Made by a program: the position numbers and the translations under genes
The notes under the pieces: model-generated
What the model was told of the DNA's origin: nothing
The model's input: only the letters and a program-made list of their open reading frames with translations
The model's database searches: none
Shown: positions 16,448 through 37,994 of the stretch, piece after piece
How positions within the stretch are numbered: the first letter of the stretch is position 1
How the letters are laid out: every line of letters starts with the position of its first letter
NCBI GenBank assembly: GCA_013289665.1
Contig: JABCZN010000006.1
Span: forward strand, 124,001 to 188,000
DNA length: 64,000 nucleotides
Direction of reading: 5' to 3'
Source of the DNA: Acidobacteriota bacterium
GTDB lineage: Bacteria; Acidobacteriota; Terriglobia; Acidiferrales; UBA7541

Positions 16448-17539
16448 TCATCCGCCCGTTCCCTTCTTGTGACCGCAGCATTCACCCGGGGGAATGGGAT
16501 TTCCGTGCGGGCAAGTCGTCGGATGCCCCAGGAACGAGCAGATCCGCTGGTCCAGCTCCGGACTGATGATGTGTTCAAACTTGCAGGCCTGGCTGTGGGC
16601 TTCGTGGTCGTCAATGCGGAATGTGTCCTTGAACAGCCGCTCCGCCAGCCGGTGCCGCCGCACAACGTCGCGTGCACGGCTTTTCCCCCGGTCCGTCAGT
16701 TCGATCAGCTGCTCTTCGAGCACCTCGACCAACCGCAGGTCTTCCATTCGTGCCAGTGTCCGCACGGGATCCAGACCGCCCGGCGTGCGAATGTGCTCGA
16801 TGTCGGCCGGCTTCCCTTCTTCTCCGCGAACCCAGATCTGCTCCAGCAGGTGATCGAAGTGAATGCCATCGTCCATTGAAATGCGCTGGTCTACCGCGAG
16901 ATGGCCATGCACCAGCTCGATCCGCCGGTCGGCCTGCTGCGCGATGTCCGGATCGTGTGTCACCATCAGGATGGTGTGTCCCGCACTGTGCAATTCGCGG
17001 AACAGTCCGAGAACGATCTCTTCATTCGCCTCGTCCAGATTGCCCGTCGGCTCGTCGGCCAAAATCAATTTCGGCTGGTTGATCAGCGCCCGCGCAATTG
17101 CCACGCGCTGTTGTTCGCCGCCTGAAAGCTGCGAAGGCAGTTGCGTCAGCCGGTGGCCCAGCCCGACCCGTTTCAGAGCTTCCGAAGCCTGCGCCTCGTC
17201 CGTCACGCTGTGAAAATACTGCGCCAGCATCACATTCTCCAGCGCATCCAAATACGGCACCAGGTGGAACTGCTGAAATACGAATCCAATCTTCTCCGCG
17301 CGATAGCGCACCAGGTCGTTCTCGGAAAGTTTGGCAAGATCCACGCCATCCACGATCACATGTCCTGACGTCAGTGTATCCAGCCCGCCCAGAATGTTAA
17401 TCAGCGTGGTCTTTCCGGAGCCCGACGGCCCCATCAACGCTACCCATTCGCCCGCCTGGATGTGAAAGGAAATGCCGTTCAACGCGCGGAGCGTCCCATA
17501 CTCCTTCACCAGCGATTCAATGCGCACTTGCGCGCTCAC
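16448..17539 (-). CDS. ABC transporter ATPase fused to a DtxR/MntR-like metal-sensing domain
   Basis: One uninterrupted 363-residue frame carries two domains. Residues 1-~218 are a LolD/MacB-type ATPase: Walker A GPSGSGKTT (37-45), Q-loop near 89, signature LSGGEQQR (139-146), Walker B LILADEP (158-164) and switch H195. Residues ~225-350 match an iron-dependent repressor. A winged-helix-like region (~228-290) is followed by RRHRLAER and ACKFEHIIS. All DtxR metal ligands have a counterpart: H296 and E300 (DtxR H79, E83), H315 (H98), C319, E322 and H323 (C102, E105, H106), and H230 at the M10 position. The tail HPTTCPHGNPIP is also DtxR-like, but there is no SH3-like third domain. Start is a GTG overlapping the upstream permease stop (GTGA), implying translational coupling. 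The ATPase should power the two FtsX-type permeases; the sensor may be a repressor, or may gate ATP hydrolysis by metal level. Confidence 0.9.
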   Translation of the reverse strand: MSAQVRIESLVKEYGTLRALNGISFHIQAGEWVALMGPSGSGKTTLINILGGLDTLTSGHVIVDGVDLAKLSENDLVRYRAEKIGFVFQQFHLVPYLDALENVMLAQYFHSVTDEAQASEALKRVGLGHRLTQLPSQLSGGEQQRVAIARALINQPKLILADEPTGNLDEANEEIVLGLFRELHSAGHTILMVTHDPDIAQQADRRIELVHGHLAVDQRISMDDGIHFDHLLEQIWVRGEEGKPADIEHIRTPGGLDPVRTLARMEDLRLVEVLEEQLIELTDRGKSRARDVVRRHRLAERLFKDTFRIDDHEAHSQACKFEHIISPELDQRICSFLGHPTTCPHGNPIPPGECCGHKKGTGG

Positions 17540-20085: not shown

Positions 20086-21348
20086 CTATCGCGGAATTTC
20101 TTCCGCAGCGTTGGTGACCGACGAAACGTCGATAACCACGTCGTCGCCATTTACCTGCGACGTAAACCCGATTGGATTGCATCCGCCCTTTTGCCCGATC
20201 GACGGGATATAAATCGCCGACGCGCAGTGCCGGCAGATTACATTCTGCCCGTCCTGCCGGTAGCCCTCCGCTCCGCAAATCAGGCAGGCATCCAGCGCCG
20301 TTCCATAGCCATTGGGCTTCTTGATGACCATGAATCGGATGGCCCGCCCTTTGGCATTCAGCGTGAAGAGATGCAAATTTCCGTCCTGCACTTCCGCAAC
20401 GGGCACTTTCACGATGCCATTCACGGCTTCCACGGCTTTCGCTTGCGGCGGTGCCGAATTCACCTTGGCATAAATAAAATCGGCCGTCAGCGCCAGGATC
20501 ACCGCCAGGCTCATGCTCGCCGCGGCGATCATCCAGCGGCGCTGCCGGCGATTTTGCGATTCGATCAGCCGGCGTTCAGCGTCATTCGTCACAGCAGTGG
20601 CTGCCTTGTTGTCGGAAGCCGCCTGCCACTCGCGGATAATCATCAACGCCGCCGCCCCGAACACAAACACAAAAAAGAATAGTTCGTTGGCCACGATCGG
20701 CCCCAGCACGGCCATCTCCGTTTTGCTCGAAGGCAGCCACTGTGCCTCGCTCAATTCGTGCAGACCGGTCACCGCCAATTGCACCGCCACCAGCATCAGA
20801 ATCCAACTGGTGACCGCAAAAAACCTGTGCAGCGGCACCTTCAACGTGCCCTTGAAAAAGAAGAGGCCCACGGCAACCGCGGCTCCGATACCCGCAATCG
20901 TTCCAATCCAGGTCTGGAAGCCTTCGGTCGAAAGCTCGACTGCGCGCAGGATCAGCGCCAACTCCGCTCCCTCTCTCACCACCATCAGGAAGACGAACAT
21001 TCCAAGGCCCCATCCCGCCGCAGAACCCGCTCGGGATGCGAACACCTCCACTTTCTCTTCAATTTCCTTTTTCAGATGCCGCGCAATGCGGTTCATCCAG
21101 ATGATCATGGTGACGACGAAAAACGCCGCCACCAGCAACAGTAGACCTTCAAATCCGTCCTCGCTGATGTTGAAACGCTCGAGCGCGATAGCCACGCCGA
21201 GGCTCAGGGCGACGGCCGCTGCCACGCCTCCCCAAACATACCGGACCAGATGGGTCCGATTGGTCCGCGATAGATAAACCAGGATAATCCCTACGATGAG
21301 GGAAGCTTCGACGCCCTCACGCAGGGCGATAAGGAAGGCAGAAAGCAC
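20086..21348 (-). CDS. FTR1-family iron permease fused to an FtrD-like DUF2318 Fe-S domain
   Basis: 420 residues from a GTG at 21348, chosen because GGAG lies 5 bases before it and the protein then starts MLSAFLIALREGVEASL as other FTR1 proteins do. A GTG at 21354 is the alternative. Residues 1-~240 form a seven-helix FTR1 permease with the paired REGxE iron motifs (REGVE 10-14, REGAE 125-129). A further TM helix (~272-295) leads into a DUF2318 domain with two CxxC pairs (C355/C358 and C372/C375) and GGCNPIGF. In yeast and bacteria FTR1 moves Fe3+ produced by a partner oxidase; DUF2318/FtrD is thought to handle electrons or iron on the periplasmic side. No P19 periplasmic partner is encoded nearby. 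Confidence 0.9.
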   Translation of the reverse strand: MLSAFLIALREGVEASLIVGIILVYLSRTNRTHLVRYVWGGVAAAVALSLGVAIALERFNISEDGFEGLLLLVAAFFVVTMIIWMNRIARHLKKEIEEKVEVFASRAGSAAGWGLGMFVFLMVVREGAELALILRAVELSTEGFQTWIGTIAGIGAAVAVGLFFFKGTLKVPLHRFFAVTSWILMLVAVQLAVTGLHELSEAQWLPSSKTEMAVLGPIVANELFFFVFVFGAAALMIIREWQAASDNKAATAVTNDAERRLIESQNRRQRRWMIAAASMSLAVILALTADFIYAKVNSAPPQAKAVEAVNGIVKVPVAEVQDGNLHLFTLNAKGRAIRFMVIKKPNGYGTALDACLICGAEGYRQDGQNVICRHCASAIYIPSIGQKGGCNPIGFTSQVNGDDVVIDVSSVTNAAEEIPR

Positions 21349-21379
21349 GCTCACTCCAGTTGAAAACGATTTGCAACAA

Positions 21380-21416: not shown

Positions 21417-21473
21417 GTCGAGACGCCCTTTCCCCCGACACGGTAGAATGGTGGCTTGCGTCTATCTACTAGA

Positions 21474-24400
21474 ATGAGAAGACCGCCGCTTACTATCGTC
21501 ACCGCACTGCTGCTCTGCTGGGCGCTTGTCTGCCAGGCCCTTCCGGCGCAAGAGCCGCAGGCTCCCACCCCGAAACGCGACGCGGAGCGCTCCTTTGTGA
21601 AACCGGACCCAAAGCGCGCCAAGAAGCTTCTGGAGCAAGCCGCCAGGGAAGAAGCCGCCGGAGATTATCTCCGCGCACTGGGCGATTACGAGGAGGCTGC
21701 TCGCTACGCCCCGTTTGACGTCACCATCGTGGGCAAAGGCACAGCGCTCCGCTCGCGCCTCTTGCACGAGCATTTGGACGGCGCGGAGCGCCTGGCTGTG
21801 GAAGGGAATATAGATGGCGCCACGCAGGAACTCGCCGCCGCGCTGGAGATCGATCCCAGCAACCCCGCGATTCTCGAGCGGCTGCAGCAGATAGGGTCCA
21901 TCAGGGAGTCCCCCACAGGCGAGCGGCGCGCGGAATCCCCCGAAGGCCTGCCCCAGCTTGCGCCAGAGAAGACCAACAGGAGCTTCAACCTGCAAACGGA
22001 CGTGAAATCCGCCTATGAACAGGTAGCCCGGGCTTTCGGCCTGAAGGCGTCGTTTGATCCAGATTTACCGGTGCGCTCCACGCGCTTGCACCTCCAGGAG
22101 GTCGATTTTTATACCGCGATGAAAGTCATGGGCATCGAAACCGGCACATTCTGGCGCCCTGTGGACTCCAAGCAATTTTTTGTCGCGGCCGACACGGCGG
22201 AGAAACGCCGCTTGTTCGAACCCGAAATTGAGGAGACCATTCAGCTGACCTCCTCGGTAACTCCCACAGAAGCCGGCGAGGTGGTCCGCGCGATTCGTGA
22301 ACTTACCGGCATAACGCGGCTCAGCCAATCCAACTCGGCGCATACCATTGCCGTCCGTGGAACCGTACAGCGCGTGCATCTCGCCGAAGAAATCGTCCGC
22401 AACCTCGAACACGGCCCCGGGGAAGTTCTCCTGGAGATCGATCTGCTGGAAGTGGATCGCACAAATGCCAGCACTCTCGGACTCACGCCGCCCACAAGTC
22501 AGCGGCTCGTTCCGGTCCCGGCGAATCTGGCAAGCTCCTTGCGTTCCGCCCCTGATCTAACGTCGCTGCTCACGCTGCTCGCGCAGGTCTTCGGCGGCCC
22601 TGCGGGAGCGCTTGCGGGCGGCGGCATCGCCAGCCTCGCGTCTTCGCTTCCGGCCGTAGCCGCCGTCGGGGGCGGTAAAAGTACGTTTCTTCTTGTTCTG
22701 CCAACCTATTCGGCACAATTTTCGCAAGCGCTCTCTCTGGTGCACAGTGGCAGACAAATTTTGCTGCGCGCGCAAGACGCGAAGCCGGCCACCTTTTTTG
22801 TAGGCGACCGTATACCCATAACGCTTTCGCTTCTTTCGGGGAGTCTCGGCTCGACCGGCTTTACTCCGAACATCGGCGGCACCGGCACGACTATCCCCAC
22901 GCAGCAATTCACTGTGGGGAAAAATCCAGTCGCCATGGTCACGGCGGATTTTCGCAGCGCCGGCACTCAGGATCTCGCCGTCGTCAACCAGACCGACAAC
23001 ACGCTGACGGTTCTGTTGAATCAAGGAACGGGAGCGGTTCCGCAATTCGCGCCGCCGACCAGCGGAATCGGCCTGGTCTCGCCTGTTCCGATGGGAACCG
23101 CTTGGACCAGTTCCACTCCGGCTCCGGCGTTGGCCACAGGAAGCCTGAATGCAGCCTCGACGGCCCCGAATAATGACAACTTTGCGGATTTGCTGGTGAC
23201 CGATCCGGTGGGAAACGCAGTGATCGTGCTTCTGGGCGACGGGGATGGCACCTTCAAAACACCCCCGGCTCCCATCCCTGTAGGCGCTCAGCCAAGTTCC
23301 ATCGTCGTGGGCACCTTTAATTCGAAGAATGGCGATTCCAACCTGGGCTTCGTGGTCACCAATTTCAAGGACAACACGTATTCGGTGTTCAACGGCAATG
23401 GCGACGGCACGTTCACCCAGGTTACCGGTTCGCCGTTCGCGTTGCCGGCCACCGCGACCGGGCCGGTCGCTATGACGGTGGCGGACTTCAACGGCGACGG
23501 CAATCCCGATCTGGCTATCGTGAACCAGACCACCCAGAACGTCACCATCCTCGAGGGCAATGGCAACGGCACCTTCACCGAATTCCCCAAATCTCCCCTC
23601 GGCGTCGGAAAAGTCCCAGTGGCCATCGCGTCCGGATCTCTCAGCGGAAGCAACGGGCCGGCTCTCGCCATCGTCAATCAGACAGACAACACGCTGTCGG
23701 TCTACCTCGGGAATGGCGACGGCACTTTCGTCGCGGCTTCGCAGTCTCCGCTCGCGACAGACACGACTCCCAGTGGCGTGGCGATTGCCGACCTTGCCCA
23801 GTCCACCACGGGCGGCATTGCAGTGACCAACACAGCCGTCGGCACGGTCACGGTGTTCGCCGATCTCGGGAGCGGCCTGTTCGCCAGCGCGATTGAACCC
23901 GCCGCCGGCACAAGCCCCGACGCCATCCTCGCCGGCGCTTTCACCAACAGCTCCTTTCCAGACGTCGTCGTCACCAACAATATCGCCAACGCGGCCGGCC
24001 AGGTCACGCTGATCGAAAGCCCCGCCAGCCTGATTTCCAATCCCGCGATCGCCCAGACACCGTATCCCGGCTCCGAATATGAGGACGTGGGAATAAAAAT
24101 CAAGGCCACGCCACAATTGCACGACAACAAGGAAGTCACGCTGCAGCTGGAATTTGAAATTAAGGCGCTCTCGGGAACCAATATCAATGGCATTCCGGTG
24201 ATTTCGAATCGCACGGTCACGCAAACCGTGCGGCTGAAGGAAGACGAAACCTCGCTGGTCACCGGGGTGCTCAGCGAGAACGAAACGAAAGCGCTGTCCG
24301 GGATTCCCGGCCTGGCTCAGTTGCCCGGCGTGGGCTACGCCTTCGGCACGCGCAACAATTCCTTCACCGACGACGAACTGCTTTTCCTGATAACGCCGCG

Positions 24401-24674
24401 CCGCGTCCGCGCGCCTTTCCATCAATCAAAGACCATCTATGCGGGAACGGGAGAGCCCACCGGCCGCGGGCAGGGCGGCGGCGCCCTCCCTGCCGGAGGA
24501 CGCTCGGATCAGGAACCTGCACCCGCACCCGCTCCCGCTCCGTCCCCGGCAGAAACGCCTGCCCCAGCACCATCAGCGCCGCCACAACCTGGTCCTCCAC
24601 CGGCTCAGCCGCCGCCGCAAAATCAGCCGCCGCAACCTCAGCCCGAAATTCCCCTGCAGCAACCACCTAGCTAA
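21474..24674 (+). CDS. Secretin-family outer membrane protein with an inserted VCBS/FG-GAP propeller
   Basis: 1066 residues from the ATG at 21474 (a TTG at 21456 also exists). A signal peptide (PPLTIVTALLLCWALVCQALPA) is followed by TPR-like helices to about residue 145, a short STN/N0-like domain, and an N1-type domain (SSVTPTEAGEVVRAIRELTG). The secretin domain opens with GEVLLEIDLLEVDRT. After FFVGDRIPITLS it is interrupted by ~380 residues (22908-24050) made of repeats such as VADFNGDGNPDLAIVNQT and GNGDGTF. It then resumes with EDVGIKIKATPQL, NGIPVISNRTVTQTVRLKEDET and IPGLAQLPGVGYAFG. The C-terminus is Pro/Gln-rich. Secretins form multimeric outer-membrane gates for type II, type III or pilus systems. 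No other secretion gene is next to it, so the system it serves is unknown. Confidence 0.88.
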   Translation: MRRPPLTIVTALLLCWALVCQALPAQEPQAPTPKRDAERSFVKPDPKRAKKLLEQAAREEAAGDYLRALGDYEEAARYAPFDVTIVGKGTALRSRLLHEHLDGAERLAVEGNIDGATQELAAALEIDPSNPAILERLQQIGSIRESPTGERRAESPEGLPQLAPEKTNRSFNLQTDVKSAYEQVARAFGLKASFDPDLPVRSTRLHLQEVDFYTAMKVMGIETGTFWRPVDSKQFFVAADTAEKRRLFEPEIEETIQLTSSVTPTEAGEVVRAIRELTGITRLSQSNSAHTIAVRGTVQRVHLAEEIVRNLEHGPGEVLLEIDLLEVDRTNASTLGLTPPTSQRLVPVPANLASSLRSAPDLTSLLTLLAQVFGGPAGALAGGGIASLASSLPAVAAVGGGKSTFLLVLPTYSAQFSQALSLVHSGRQILLRAQDAKPATFFVGDRIPITLSLLSGSLGSTGFTPNIGGTGTTIPTQQFTVGKNPVAMVTADFRSAGTQDLAVVNQTDNTLTVLLNQGTGAVPQFAPPTSGIGLVSPVPMGTAWTSSTPAPALATGSLNAASTAPNNDNFADLLVTDPVGNAVIVLLGDGDGTFKTPPAPIPVGAQPSSIVVGTFNSKNGDSNLGFVVTNFKDNTYSVFNGNGDGTFTQVTGSPFALPATATGPVAMTVADFNGDGNPDLAIVNQTTQNVTILEGNGNGTFTEFPKSPLGVGKVPVAIASGSLSGSNGPALAIVNQTDNTLSVYLGNGDGTFVAASQSPLATDTTPSGVAIADLAQSTTGGIAVTNTAVGTVTVFADLGSGLFASAIEPAAGTSPDAILAGAFTNSSFPDVVVTNNIANAAGQVTLIESPASLISNPAIAQTPYPGSEYEDVGIKIKATPQLHDNKEVTLQLEFEIKALSGTNINGIPVISNRTVTQTVRLKEDETSLVTGVLSENETKALSGIPGLAQLPGVGYAFGTRNNSFTDDELLFLITPRRVRAPFHQSKTIYAGTGEPTGRGQGGGALPAGGRSDQEPAPAPAPAPSPAETPAPAPSAPPQPGPPPAQPPPQNQPPQPQPEIPLQQPPS

Positions 24675-24809: not shown

Positions 24810-25784
24810 TCAGGGCAGTGGATCAAACACAACAATCGGCTGGTAAGTCCTCGGCACCACCGCTTCGGCGATGGCGATCAACTTGTTTTCCTGGCTGAAG
24901 ACTCGCAGTCGAGGCGGCTGTGCTTCTTCTGTATCGAGATGCGTTGTCGCTCCCGGCGGCAACTCCACGCGGCCCGGCTTCAGCTGCGAAGGCATCACGT
25001 TGAACTTCCCCCCGTGGCGAATTTTCTTTTCAAGCACCGGCAGCACATTGGTCCGCGGGAAATTGGGCAGCAGGTGCTCCAGCGGAATCAGAAAGGATTC
25101 GAACTTCCCATCCTTCCTGGCCTGCGCCAGCTCTTCCAGGCTGATGGCCTGCTCCAGGGAAAATTCCCCCACCGCCGTGCGGCAGATTTCCGCCAGATGG
25201 GCGCCGCACCCCAGCTTCCGCCCCATGTCGTCGACCAGCGACCGGATGTAGGTCCCCGAGGAGCACTCGATTGAAAACCTTGCGATCGGTCCTTCGATCC
25301 CCGTCAGCCGGTACTCAAAAATCTCCACCGGCACTGCTTTCAGCTCTACAACCTGATTTTTGCGGGCCAGTTCGTACGCGGGCCGCCCGTGAATTTTCTT
25401 GGCGGAAAAAATCGGCGGCTTCTGTTCGAACCGCCCAGTGGACTCCGCCGCGAGCTGCTGCAACACCTCTCGCTCGAGCACAGGCGCCAGATCCGGGCCC
25501 GCCGGCTGCCCTTCCGAGTCAAACGTGTTGGTGGCATAGCCGAAGCGGAAACCAGCGGTGTAGCGCTTGCGCCGCCCGGTATAAAACCGCACAAAACGAG
25601 TGGCCTTGCCGAGCAGCAGGACCAGAACTCCCGTCGCCAGCGGATCGAGCGTGCCCAGATGCCCGATTTGCCGGAAGCCCGCGAGGTGGCGCACCGCATC
25701 CACGATGTCGTGCGAAGTCTTGCCTTGGGGCTTGTTGATGACCAGTGCGCCATCGAACGGGGCGGGTTGTGGTTGACGCGGCAT
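24810..25784 (-). CDS. truB: tRNA pseudouridine(55) synthase
   Basis: 324 residues. TruB isomerises U55 in the T-loop of tRNAs. The catalytic motif HLGTLDPLATGVLVLLLGKATR holds the essential Asp, and DGALVINKPQGKTSHDIV is the N-terminal signature. KRYTAGFRFG and SSGTYIRSLVDDMG are the later conserved blocks. The C-terminal ~70 residues resemble a PUA-like domain (GRVELPPG, RLRVFSQENKLIAIAEA). It closes the rimP-nusA-infB-rbfA cluster, the usual bacterial arrangement. Confidence 0.95.
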   Translation of the reverse strand: MPRQPQPAPFDGALVINKPQGKTSHDIVDAVRHLAGFRQIGHLGTLDPLATGVLVLLLGKATRFVRFYTGRRKRYTAGFRFGYATNTFDSEGQPAGPDLAPVLEREVLQQLAAESTGRFEQKPPIFSAKKIHGRPAYELARKNQVVELKAVPVEIFEYRLTGIEGPIARFSIECSSGTYIRSLVDDMGRKLGCGAHLAEICRTAVGEFSLEQAISLEELAQARKDGKFESFLIPLEHLLPNFPRTNVLPVLEKKIRHGGKFNVMPSQLKPGRVELPPGATTHLDTEEAQPPRLRVFSQENKLIAIAEAVVPRTYQPIVVFDPLP

Positions 25785-33122: not shown

Positions 33123-36100
33123 TTACTTCGGCAGGGCCAGGAACACCACGCGATTGTTGTTTTGGTCCACGATCACCGCGGTGTTTGTGACGTTGTCCAC
33201 GTCAATCGCGAACTGTGACATGCTGCTAATCCCCAGCGTCTGCCGGGTCGTGAAATTCTGCACGTCCACCACGGAGCTGCTGTTAGACGTTGAATTGATC
33301 GTCAGCAAGGTTCCGGTCTGGAAATTGTACCCCAGCGAATAGGGGTTGATCCCCACACGGACGGTCTGCACCGAGCCAGTATCCGGGTTGAGCGAGAAGA
33401 TGGCATTGGCCTGGGTGGAGGTGGAGTAGAAAAGTCCCGTGGTCGTGGTCGCCGTGGTATTCGGGTCTCCGGGATCATAAACTATCCCCGTGAGGCTCGC
33501 TGATACCGAAGAAACCGAGGCCGTCGAGCTCTTGATCGGCGGCACGTTGGCAAGGTTTACGACGTCGATTCCCCCCGATACGCTCGTCGTGCCGGAGTTT
33601 TGCAGGTTTGTTACCGCGGCCACTGCCCGGTTCGGATCGATGGCGATGGCTATCGGCGGTCCACTGAGCGCAACTGGTGTGACCGCCGGCACCCCTTGCA
33701 CGTGGCCTGTGCCGCTGGCCGGGCTTGTGGGCAACAGGGGTGTGAGGTCGACCGAAGACAGTGTGTTCGAACCGCTGTTGGCCACGAGAGCCAGTCCACG
33801 ATCCTGATCGACTGTCACTCCCAGCGGTAAAATGCCAACGGTCACCTTGTTTGTCGGTGTCGTCGTTGTGCCCGACGTTACGTTCCAAGAGACGATCTGC
33901 GGACTCTCGGGCGTGCTGATATCAATGATTGAAGCCGTGCCGTTGGGCGTGTCGCCACTGTTCGCCACCACGGCATAACCCAGCCGCGGGATCACACCGA
34001 TCCCCAAGGGCTGATTCCCCACAGTTACCGAACCAAGGACGGTACCGAACGGTACCTTTGTCCCGTTCTTTGTCATGTAACCGCTCGGATCAATGGCGAT
34101 CACTGCCACGCTGTTGCAAGCGTAATTGCTTATCAACGCAATGTGCCGCGTGGAATCCACCGCCACTCCTTCCGGCCCTTGCGGGAAACTCGACGTCGGG
34201 GTGCACGCGTTGGTCCCCAAGGCCGTCATATTCCCGATATCCAGCAATCCAACCACGTTCAGGTCCACCTCATTTGTGATTGCACCACCCGGCGACAATA
34301 CGTCCACCGCAAAGACGTGCGGCCCGGTTAGCATCGCGGCGGGAAGGGTCAGATCCAGTTCGCTGTCGGCCACATACGTTGTACAGAATGTTCCGGGACT
34401 CTTGCTGCAGTCGTTCGACACTTGCCCGTCAAGGCGCGCCAGCGCTCCCGAAGTGGTTCCAAAACCCTGTCCAAGAATGCGGACCGTGGCCGTCACACCT
34501 ACTTGTACCGACTGAGGCATGCAGGGATTTGACGGATTCGAAGGACTGCAAGGCCCGGGCGCGTGCGAGGGGCTTGCCGTGCTCAACGGCGGTTGGATCA
34601 CTGGCACGCCAAAGCAGGTTTGGGGATTCGTTGCGTCACCACAACTCGGGTTCGGCAGCTCCAGATCCAAGATGTGCGCCTTCTGGAATGCATTCGTCGG
34701 ATCAAGACTCATGTAGCTCAGCGAGTTGCTTCCCGCATTTGCCACGAAAACATATTTTGTGATTGGGTCATACGCCATCGGCCCGAACACGGGCGCCGCC
34801 GAGGTCTGTCCGGACGGGGTGTAGGATCCTTGACCGACTTGTCCCGTCGGCGTCGCGGCAATAATCCTGTAAGGGAAATTGCTGGCTCCGTTCAGGTTCG
34901 CTCCTCCCGGATTGATCAGCGAGATCTTATTCCCGTTCTGACTGGCGCTTGTGTTCGCCGTCGGTGCGTATGCGATCATCACGTTCGTATACGGATCGAA
35001 CGCCACCGACCGGAATCCTGTCTCGGGCGCTCCGGGTGGTGTCGGCGTACACAGGTTGCAACTTCCTGCCGACAGCGACAACGACGTGAGCGTTTGATCG
35101 AGCGTGCTGATGAACCCGATTTGCCCGGAACTGGCGTTGTAGTCCGAGAACCCGAACGTCCGCGTAACCGGGTTGATTGCGGCGCCGGCAACGGTAATGG
35201 AAGTTCCCAGGGAATAGTAGGGGACCCCGTACTGCACCGTGCCCGGCATATTGGCGGGATTACTTTCCGTGTCATCCGGCTGACCGACCTGCGTATAGGA
35301 AAACGTGAAGGGGTCGATTACGCTTCCGGGCAGTATTTGAAATGTTCCATTGAAATTGGACATGGCGGTGGAAGTGGTGATCCCCGAAATGATCACGGTG
35401 CCGCCAAGCACGGGATTGATGCCGTGTGGCGATGAGGTGATAATCTTCGTCACCCCCGCGGTGCGCACCGCTCCGCTGGTTCCGCCGGACACAAACGGCT
35501 CAATCTGCGCCGTCTTGCCCTGTTGCAAGAGGTCCACGACAGACGTTGTTCCAGTTCCTCCACCAGGCGTCACGTAGGCCAGTGGCACATTCGGCTGCAT
35601 TACCACCTTCGGCGTGGCTCCGGTCACAATCGACACCGGGCCAACAACGCAAGGTGCGGTTCCTCCCAAAAAGCAAGTGCGGCTATCCTTTCCGTCCAGA
35701 TTCGGATTCACATCCACAATGAACCCGATATTCGTATTCGTATAGGCCACCACTCCGAGGTGTGTAACCGTATCCACTCCGACCGCATAGGGCGTAGGCA
35801 GCCCCGTTGCCGACGGTTCCCCGAGCAGGGTCCGCAGATCCAACGAAACGCTCTTTACGGGAGCAAGCGGCGTTGGCGCCCCGGGGGTGACGGAATAGAG
35901 GTAAAGCGTGCTGTCGGAACCGCTCACAATCGCCGCAAGATCGCCGCCGTTGACGTTCAGCTGGTTGTCAATCGCGATGTCGGTCGGCGCGGGCTGTGTC
36001 CCGCCGACTGCCGCCTTTATCGGCACTGGGGGCCCGCTTTGCGAGGGACCCGCCGGAGACAGTGTTACCAATTGCAATGCGCCTGTGCCTTGCTCGGTGA

Positions 36101-37901
36101 TCACCGCGTATCCTCTGATCGAGTTCAGCGCGATGGCACTCGGAGCCGGATTGCCGCCCCCGGCCAGCAGTGTGCAAGCGGGATACGCGCCAGACAGGTT
36201 TGTCGGCGGGGTCGCAATTGAAGGATCGACGCAAGAGGCCGACGAGGAGTTCGTGGGGTTCGGATTGAAACTTGCAAAGTTCGGCTGCACCGCCGTGTTC
36301 GCGGTCAGCGTACCAAACATCGGTGACGTACCTTGCTGGGTGGTATTGCTTTGTACAGTGACTTCATAAAGTCCGGGACTCGGCAATTGAAATCCCTGCA
36401 TCTGGCCCAAAAGCTGCCTGGGTCCTGAATTTGGGCTCAAAAGCACCGTGTTCCCATTGAAGCTCAATCTTGCCAGCGAGCCGGATACACCGTAATACCC
36501 CCCGTTGGTTGCAAATTGCAGCGAGGCCTGTCCGCTCGTCGGCTGGGGAATGCTGTCCGGTACAGCTGTTACCAGGCCGGGATTCGCTTTTATAATGTGG
36601 ATGGGGCATGCAATGGAATTTGTGGTGCCCGGGAACAACACGCAAGGCGGCGTTGCAGTCGGCGGCGGAGTACCCGGCAGATTTGCCACCAAGATCCAAG
36701 CTGGCTGCGTAGGATCAGGCTCCGGATCTCTCAACTGGTCGGCGAGCAAGCGCACACGGGTCAGGATCGACGCATCGCAAGTCACCGTCTTTGTTGCTCC
36801 CGCAGTGCCGGCAGTGGCTGGCGTGCAATACGCCAGGGTTATCGGAATTTCGAATACCTGGGTCGCGCTGTTCAGCGGCACCTGTGCGCCACTCGCCAGA
36901 TTGGCCGCCGAAGTGGGCCGAATAAAGAAAATCTGCGTGGTGTTCAGCAGATTGGACGCATTCAGAAATACATCCTGCAAAAGGCCGCCCGCCGCGATCG
37001 TGGTCGGGTAAAGGCTTGTGTAACTGACCGCGTTCGTCGAGGCATTCACCAGCGTGATCGTCGCAAACGTGGAGTGCGATTCGTCCGCCTGCGACCAGGC
37101 CACGACGTATACAGTTGTCGGAGACGCGCCACCCTTCGGAACTGTCTCGGAGGGGATGGCCATCGGCGCCGTATATTTCCCGTTCGAATCGATTGTCCCG
37201 CAACCCGGATTCGCGGCCGTCGGGCTGCTGACCGTGCAAGTGTCGGCCAGCGGGTTCGGTGTCTGATCGTTGAGGTTACTTGACGAGGTGTTTACCTGCA
37301 TGAGCAGATATTTCACGCCGACTGGCGGAGAATTCAGAAACGATACGTCGAAGTTAGCGGTTGCAGGTGTCGACAGACCCACCGGCACCGTTGCTGTCGT
37401 CGGTGATATGGATGCGCGAATTCCGCTATCCAGGCCGACCGTGGCCGTGGCTGTCTTCTTGTGGTCCGCGTCCGCTGTTGCGGTAAATGTCAACGTTAGG
37501 GCATACGGCTGGGGGAAGTTACTGAGCGTTGGCCCGGTGTATGTCAAAACGTTGGAGCCGTTCGCCGTGCTGATGATCCAGGTTCCGAACGATCCGGTCT
37601 CTGCGCCGGATAGGGTGCCCCCCGATGTGCACGGTCCGGTTGTCGCCTTCGGCGTGGGATTCGCAGTCGTGCTTGCGATCGTATATGAATACGTGCACGG
37701 CCAGGCTGTGACCGTGGTCGTCGTCGACCCGCTTACCGTCGCCGTGAACGTCTGCACCTGCCCCGTCAGCACCGTGACCGAACTCGGCGCCACCGTCACC
37801 GTCACCACGTTCACGCTGGAACTGCCGCACCCGGACATCACCATCGCCGCGGCCGCGGCGCATACCGCCAGGATCGAATTTCTTGTTGTTCGCCAACTCA
37901 T
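33123..37901 (-). CDS. Very large YVTN/NHL beta-propeller lipoprotein with Ig-like N-terminal domain
   Basis: 1592 residues from the ATG at 37901, which has GGGAG 9 bases upstream; earlier in-frame starts at 37934 and 37919 are less well placed. The signal peptide ends in a lipobox (VMSGCGSSS), so the protein is a lipoprotein. The first domain is Ig-like (VTVAPSSVTVLTGQVQTFTATVSG) and others of this kind follow. The middle and C-terminal parts have YVTN-type propeller repeats (PLGIGVIPRLGYAVVANSGD; PLGVTVDQDRGLALVANSGSNTLSSVDL). Cys pairs occur in places. It lies between bamA and skp on the same strand. Function unknown; binding or surface display is plausible. Ser/Thr/Pro/Gly content is high, as in other exposed proteins. 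Confidence 0.85.
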   Translation of the reverse strand: MSWRTTRNSILAVCAAAAAMVMSGCGSSSVNVVTVTVAPSSVTVLTGQVQTFTATVSGSTTTTVTAWPCTYSYTIASTTANPTPKATTGPCTSGGTLSGAETGSFGTWIISTANGSNVLTYTGPTLSNFPQPYALTLTFTATADADHKKTATATVGLDSGIRASISPTTATVPVGLSTPATANFDVSFLNSPPVGVKYLLMQVNTSSSNLNDQTPNPLADTCTVSSPTAANPGCGTIDSNGKYTAPMAIPSETVPKGGASPTTVYVVAWSQADESHSTFATITLVNASTNAVSYTSLYPTTIAAGGLLQDVFLNASNLLNTTQIFFIRPTSAANLASGAQVPLNSATQVFEIPITLAYCTPATAGTAGATKTVTCDASILTRVRLLADQLRDPEPDPTQPAWILVANLPGTPPPTATPPCVLFPGTTNSIACPIHIIKANPGLVTAVPDSIPQPTSGQASLQFATNGGYYGVSGSLARLSFNGNTVLLSPNSGPRQLLGQMQGFQLPSPGLYEVTVQSNTTQQGTSPMFGTLTANTAVQPNFASFNPNPTNSSSASCVDPSIATPPTNLSGAYPACTLLAGGGNPAPSAIALNSIRGYAVITEQGTGALQLVTLSPAGPSQSGPPVPIKAAVGGTQPAPTDIAIDNQLNVNGGDLAAIVSGSDSTLYLYSVTPGAPTPLAPVKSVSLDLRTLLGEPSATGLPTPYAVGVDTVTHLGVVAYTNTNIGFIVDVNPNLDGKDSRTCFLGGTAPCVVGPVSIVTGATPKVVMQPNVPLAYVTPGGGTGTTSVVDLLQQGKTAQIEPFVSGGTSGAVRTAGVTKIITSSPHGINPVLGGTVIISGITTSTAMSNFNGTFQILPGSVIDPFTFSYTQVGQPDDTESNPANMPGTVQYGVPYYSLGTSITVAGAAINPVTRTFGFSDYNASSGQIGFISTLDQTLTSLSLSAGSCNLCTPTPPGAPETGFRSVAFDPYTNVMIAYAPTANTSASQNGNKISLINPGGANLNGASNFPYRIIAATPTGQVGQGSYTPSGQTSAAPVFGPMAYDPITKYVFVANAGSNSLSYMSLDPTNAFQKAHILDLELPNPSCGDATNPQTCFGVPVIQPPLSTASPSHAPGPCSPSNPSNPCMPQSVQVGVTATVRILGQGFGTTSGALARLDGQVSNDCSKSPGTFCTTYVADSELDLTLPAAMLTGPHVFAVDVLSPGGAITNEVDLNVVGLLDIGNMTALGTNACTPTSSFPQGPEGVAVDSTRHIALISNYACNSVAVIAIDPSGYMTKNGTKVPFGTVLGSVTVGNQPLGIGVIPRLGYAVVANSGDTPNGTASIIDISTPESPQIVSWNVTSGTTTTPTNKVTVGILPLGVTVDQDRGLALVANSGSNTLSSVDLTPLLPTSPASGTGHVQGVPAVTPVALSGPPIAIAIDPNRAVAAVTNLQNSGTTSVSGGIDVVNLANVPPIKSSTASVSSVSASLTGIVYDPGDPNTTATTTTGLFYSTSTQANAIFSLNPDTGSVQTVRVGINPYSLGYNFQTGTLLTINSTSNSSSVVDVQNFTTRQTLGISSMSQFAIDVDNVTNTAVIVDQNNNRVVFLALPK

Positions 37902-37994
37902 GGATCGAATCTCCCTCATTGATTCACCGCCCAAACTTTCCGCGGGTCTTCTGAAGTCATCTCGCTAAATGAAACTCGTATTCCCGCCGCGCTC

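What the first reader, a model, noticed from the sequence alone, without database searches (positions are those of the whole stretch)
22908..24050. Seven-bladed VCBS/FG-GAP propeller inserted in a secretin barrel domain
Seen: typical secretin blocks flank ~380 residues with about seven repeat units, starting near residues 485, 550, 606, 664, 715, 766 and 815 of the ATG-initiated protein, each with a VADF/ASGSL-type strand and DxDGxx loops. The flanking parts join as in ordinary secretins (GDRIPITLS, then EDVGIKIKATPQL). Known: VCBS/FG-GAP repeats form propellers that bind ligands or Ca2+. Inference: the propeller may sit in or above the secretin channel and act as a plug, an adhesin or a substrate filter.
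Basis: partly seen in the sequence, partly recalled or inferred. Interest (0 to 1): 0.86.

Follow-up and report, generated by a model that had tools for sequence, protein, structure and literature searches.

The report
Propeller domain in a secretin gate
A family of soil Acidobacteria carries a giant outer-membrane export pore whose central gate loop holds a large wheel-shaped domain, so that a dozen or so wheels should sit at the mouth of each pore; this domain layout appears undescribed.

Summary
Confirmed and sharpened. The window gene (21474-24674, +) encodes a 1066-residue secretin (signal peptide, TPR, N-domains, GspD-like C-module) carrying a closed seven-bladed FG-GAP/VCBS propeller. 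The insert lies exactly between the two pivot glycines of the central gate (G444, G873), at the tip of gate hairpin 1. Pivot-to-pivot distance is about 430 residues, against about 41 in insert-free orthologues at the same locus and 30 in XcpD. All 42 named loci with an insert have FG-GAP repeats at this one point; they belong to gp2 Acidobacteria ("Candidatus Acidiferrales"). By open-frame length 12 of 13 genera of the window's family carry it; sampled other families do not. The propeller is under strong purifying selection (dN/dS about 0.04) and tracks the secretin phylogeny (r = 0.81). In some sublineages Ig-like domains are nested between its blades. Twelve to fifteen copies should not fit inside the channel, so I infer a crown at the extracellular mouth that props or replaces the central gate and acts as lid and binding surface; a plug inside the lumen is less likely. 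Function and oligomer structure are untested. I found no published description.

The parts
21474..24674 (+). secretin gene (ATG start; frame open from TTG 21456), 1066 aa
21609..21905 (+). periplasmic TPR-like helices (residues 46-144)
   Evidence: (TPR, sub-threshold in Pfam), helices at pLDDT ~90
21978..22409 (+). N-domains (residues 169-312, secretin N0/N1-type)
   Evidence: secondary structure; the insert-free orthologue aligns to PilQ/InvG/EscC N-domains
22422..22826 (+). first half of the secretin C-module, ending in gate hairpin strand 439-451; pivot glycine 444 at 22803
22827..22898 (+). N-terminal linker between gate strand and propeller (low pLDDT)
   Evidence: residues 453-472 below 50
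22899..24038 (+). seven-bladed FG-GAP/VCBS beta-propeller (about residues 476-855)
24039..24068 (+). C-terminal linker back to the gate strand
   Evidence: residues 856-865 below 50
24069..24410 (+). second half of the secretin C-module (strands 866-979); pivot glycine 873 at 24090
24420..24671 (+). proline-rich, predicted disordered C-terminal tail
20089..21354 (-). divergent FTR1-FtrD iron permease gene, conserved neighbour (context only)
24813..25784 (-). convergent truB; rbfA, infB, nusA and rimP follow; the locus is shared with insert-free orthologues (context only)
   Evidence: gene names from the translated sequence and gene order

Best explanation
It is an orphan outer-membrane secretin in which a seven-bladed FG-GAP propeller has been inserted, with flexible linkers, into the tip of central gate hairpin 1 (shown by sequence, homologues and model). 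The 12-15 subunits of an assembled ring (number assumed from other secretins) would each bring one propeller to the pore axis. The lumen cannot hold them, so the hairpins most likely stand in the raised, open-like position and the propellers form a crown at the extracellular mouth (inferred). The crown would replace the thin central gate as the barrier, working like the optional top gate of Vibrio-type GspD. It would also present a ring of integrin-like, acidic binding faces to the outside, as an adhesin or receptor whose binding, or the push of a substrate, moves the lid (inferred). The genome's type II secretion-like E/F/L/M cluster has no secretin beside it and is one candidate partner (weak inference).
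For: Gate mapping: the XcpD central gate is residues 466-496 between two pivot glycines, with the tip at 477-480 (PMC10550240). The 5wln alignment (redrawn with insert-free orthologues) puts those glycines at our G444 and G873. All 42 insert-bearing named loci have the insert between these points (366-678 residues between profile ends), against 15-37 in insert-free relatives. A propeller of high pLDDT is flanked by linkers under 50, with gate strands at 439-451 and 866-882. The insert-free orthologue folds like GspD (Z about 15). Conserved locus. Purifying selection on the propeller, dN/dS 0.04, against 0.11-0.16 in the structured secretin parts where it could be computed. Extra Ig-like domains between blades need open space. 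Volume estimate and acidic composition, pI 4.05. No secretin beside the T2SS-like cluster.
Against: No oligomer was modelled; pTM of the monomer is 0.44 and the relative position of propeller and barrel is undefined. The volume argument uses assumed lumen dimensions and subunit number. Partner machine, substrate and ligand are unknown; a second orphan secretin (G000:C1:404-406 kb) could equally serve the T2SS-like cluster. Surface exposure is inferred, not shown.
Confidence: 0.5

Rival explanations
1. The propellers are a plug or sieve inside the channel, above or below the gate, much as the plug domain of a TonB-dependent receptor.
For: The insertion point is the part that closes the lumen in known secretins, and linkers of about 10-24 residues would let some propellers sit inside.
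Against: Estimated total volume exceeds the lumen about 1.5- to 2.7-fold; some orthologues add about 150-270 residues of Ig-like domains to each insert.
Confidence: 0.15
2. The secretin is only a display scaffold: the propeller ring is an adhesin for soil polymers, minerals or other cells, and the pore no longer secretes.
For: Orphan gene with no pilus or T2SS gene beside it; nested He_PIG/Big_2 domains are common in surface adhesins (their commonness is general knowledge); integrin-alpha-like fold.
Against: The N-domains that dock on inner-membrane machines, the pivot glycines and the C-module are all kept.
Confidence: 0.2
3. The insert is a nearly neutral passenger, tolerated because a propeller has its two ends side by side.
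For: One genus of the family (G057/L097, G058/L093) has the secretin at the same locus without the insert.
Against: dN/dS of the propeller is about 0.04, as low as or lower than the secretin parts; kept in 12 of 13 genera by open-frame length.
Confidence: 0.08
4. Assembly chimera, frame error or wrong gene call.
For: Nearly all insert-bearing records are titled as metagenome-assembled genomes.
Against: The same junctions recur in 42 separate named records with open frames, and gene order is conserved.
Confidence: 0.01

Closest known systems
GspD/XcpD/PulD type II secretion secretins (Secretin, PF00263)
   Same: C-module fold (Z about 15 for the insert-free orthologue), pivot glycines, N-domains
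   Different: Central gate hairpin is about 30 residues in XcpD and about 430 here, with a globular domain in it; TPR-like N-terminus; proline-rich tail; no T2SS gene beside it
Top (cap) gate of Vibrio-type GspD
   Same: An added apical barrier contributed by each subunit (proposed parallel)
   Different: The top gate is a short extra hairpin in the apical loop of the barrel; here the addition is a folded domain in the central gate hairpin
FG-GAP/VCBS propellers: integrin alpha head and bacterial integrin-like propeller proteins (PMC3192720, seen as title and start of abstract)
   Same: Seven blades with FG-GAP repeats and, in some members, DxDxDGxxD loops
   Different: Inserted in a membrane pore subunit; most Ca2+ loops are degenerate in the window protein
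Amuc_1098-type secretins (NF042912)
   Same: Weak NCBIfam match over the TPR-like N-terminal part (37 bits, cut-off 750)
   Different: Far under the family cut-off; whether Amuc_1098 has any gate insert was not checked here

Membership tests
Secretin (PF00263) | match to the secretin C-module profile over the curated cut-off | tested here: met
   95 bits against 27.5
Secretin (PF00263) | GspD-like fold of the C-module | tested here: met
   tested on the insert-free orthologue L093: Z 14.9 to 5wq8, 217 residues; the full-length window model also matches PulD, PilQ and InvG by Foldseek
Secretin (PF00263) | 12-15-mer double-walled barrel in the outer membrane | not testable with these tools
   no multimer prediction offered
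Central gate of secretins | hairpin between two conserved pivot glycines | tested here: met
   G444 and G873; both invariant in 31 homologues
Central gate of secretins | short loops that converge and close the lumen | tested here: not met
   about 430 residues with a folded domain instead of 30-41; closure itself is untestable here
FG-GAP/VCBS seven-bladed propeller | FG-GAP_3 repeats over cut-off | tested here: met
   87 bits; FG-GAP_3 matched by all 42 members scanned, the window among them
FG-GAP/VCBS seven-bladed propeller | closed seven-bladed fold | tested here: met
   (predicted model)
FG-GAP/VCBS seven-bladed propeller | Ca2+ loops DxDxDGxxD in several blades (common, not required) | tested here: not met
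   1 of 7 in the window protein; 1-7 in relatives
GspD (type II secretion, TIGR02517) | score over the equivalog cut-off | tested here: not met
   76.9 against 351 bits; the insert may lower the score
PilQ (type IV pilus, TIGR02515) | score over the subfamily cut-off, pilMNOP next to it | tested here: not met
   49 against 284 bits; no pil genes beside it, and the genome has a separate pilQ downstream of a pilM gene
Vibrio-type top gate | added hairpin in the apical loop of the barrel | not tested
   apical loop (residues about 340-410) modelled at low confidence

The most novel reading that the evidence does not exclude
A secretin whose central gate has been rebuilt as a crown of 12-15 gate-tethered propellers at the cell surface, so that ligand binding to an integrin-like domain directly opens or closes a giant outer-membrane channel: a ligand-gated secretin.
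Probability: 0.2. Interest if true: 0.9.

Novelty: new variant of a known kind. Interest (0 to 1): 0.72.

Why it matters
Gate hairpin 1 is a highly constrained moving part of secretins; single substitutions there make the channel leak or stop secretion. A whole family of bacteria that carries a 38-kDa domain at its tip shows that the gate can be converted into something else. It offers a natural test of what closes a secretin and where gate tips point, and suggests a way in which a surface receptor and a giant pore can be joined in one chain.

Tried and rejected
Literature searches for secretins with propeller, FG-GAP, VCBS or inserted domains, and for Acidoferrales secretion systems, gave nothing relevant (open-access PMC only). 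The propeller alone found no strong solved relative by sequence, only TcdB-type propellers at E about 0.007. Rfam: nothing in the window. Monophyly of insert-bearing secretins: the free tree nests the insert-free genus (L093/L097) among them, but the AU test does not reject a single clade (p = 0.10), so one gain without loss and one gain with one loss remain open. Gate inserts of other kinds in unrelated secretin families were not surveyed.

Full report
What is there. The + strand frame 21456-24674 (TTG; the likelier start is ATG at 21474) has no stop and encodes a secretin with a signal peptide, TPR-like helices, N-domains, a C-module and a proline-rich tail. Pfam gives Secretin at 95 bits and FG-GAP_3 at 87 bits in the same chain. 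The secretin match in the second half starts only at profile position 51, because the first part of the domain lies some 390 residues upstream. Seven repeat units fill the gap.

Fold. AlphaFold2 on an alignment of 31 homologues gives pLDDT mostly 80-95 for residues 476-850, with linkers under 50 on both sides (453-472, 856-865). VIA-align matches 472-855 to propellers at Z 30-32, integrin alpha subunits among them. The flanking strands 439-451 and 866-882 are, by homology, the two strands of the gate hairpin. A second model, of the insert-free orthologue L093, matches GspD at Z about 15, and also pIV, InvG, RcpA and PilQ.

Where the insert sits. For XcpD the central gate is residues 466-496, between pivot glycines, with Cys probes at its tip, 477 and 480 (PMC10550240). 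The chain numbering of 5wln is offset by 34 (my inference from the matching residues), so VG(466)QNVP and ERKDIG(496) are the two ends; they align with VG(444)DRIP and YEDVG(873) here. In 31 homologues the pivot-to-pivot stretch is 405-463 residues with the usual insert, 566-618 with the larger ones and 35-41 without. In the named-genome scan the distance between fixed profile ends is 366-678 or 15-37, with nothing between (two rows, L129 and L130, read 82 and 63 because the first profile matched only in part). The insertion point is thus the tip of gate hairpin 1, where every subunit reaches towards the pore axis.

Distribution and history. The insert-bearing loci come from gp2 Acidobacteria, some titled Candidatus Acidiferrum or Acidoferrales (one record is titled Betaproteobacteria, presumably mislabelled). 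In the window's family, 81 of 89 genomes hold the gene at E 1e-70. Insert content was verified for the window and 41 named loci, all with FG-GAP (a 42nd named locus, L078, was left out as a near-copy). Insert-bearing and insert-free orthologues lie at the same place beside infB and nusA, and usually truB and rbfA, so the domain entered an existing gene. Sampled other families of the order and class have the insert-free form. The secretin tree made without the insert puts the insert-free genus inside (two changes), but one clade is not rejected. Propeller and secretin identities correlate (r 0.81, 0 of 2000 permutations): one gain followed by vertical descent is the simplest reading.

Constraint and elaboration. 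Between the window and its nearest named relative (L051) dN/dS is 0.043 in the propeller and 0.11-0.16 in the structured secretin parts where it can be computed; synonymous sites are near saturation, so the values are rough. Seven members of the alignment carry about 150-190 residues between blades 3 and 4, in number and place matching the seven He_PIG hits. One (L070) carries about 270 residues between blades 1 and 2, the likely holder of the single Big_2 match. These labels need three changes on the tree, so elaboration happened more than once.

How it may work. A secretin ring has 12-15 subunits (PMC8563730). The propeller weighs 38 kDa, about 46,000 A^3; 12-15 copies need 550,000-690,000 A^3, and a generous lumen (radius 45, height 60 A, my assumption) has 380,000. 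Add the Ig domains of some members and confinement is unlikely. [quoted passage not shown] I therefore favour a crown of propellers outside, which acts as lid and binding surface. Ca2+ control is not indicated for this species: one of seven loops is intact.

Which machine. The gene stands alone between a divergent iron-uptake operon and convergent translation genes. The genome has a separate pilQ downstream of a pilM gene, an orphan TPR secretin at C1:404-406 kb, and a T2SS-like cluster (E, F, L, M) without a secretin next to it. Partnership with that cluster is possible but unproven.

Verdict. The family parts are known, the combination at the gate tip is a new variant, and the mechanism is inferred.

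Noticed in passing
window 16451-17539 (-): ABC transporter ATPase fused at its C-terminus to an iron-dependent repressor metal-binding/dimerisation domain (Fe_dep_repr_C, 99 bits), in a run with two permease-like genes and an FTR1-FtrD fusion: possible metal-sensing transporter. Conserved in the family.
   Followed up: partly
window 33126-37934 (-): 1603-residue lipoprotein-like frame (MSGCGSSS near its start) with no Pfam match, next to a BamA-like Omp85 gene.
   Followed up: no
L081, L083, L085, L086, L089, L091, L098 (between blades 3 and 4) and L070 (between blades 1 and 2): Ig-like domains nested between blades of the gate propeller: insert within insert, gained more than once.
   Followed up: partly
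G000:C1:540.7-547 kb (L131, L133): T2SS-like E/F/L/M cluster right after the type IV pilus genes, without a secretin beside it.
   Followed up: partly
G000:C21:47888-48241 (L004): Weak secretin match (23.6 bits, under cut-off) in a 213-residue frame: possible secretin relic or short secretin-like protein.
   Followed up: no
L062 (CAJCHZ010000007.1) and L097 (JAIMBE010000015.1): Contigs titled Betaproteobacteria and Bacillota carry clear acidobacterial orthologues: probably mislabelled MAGs.
   Followed up: no
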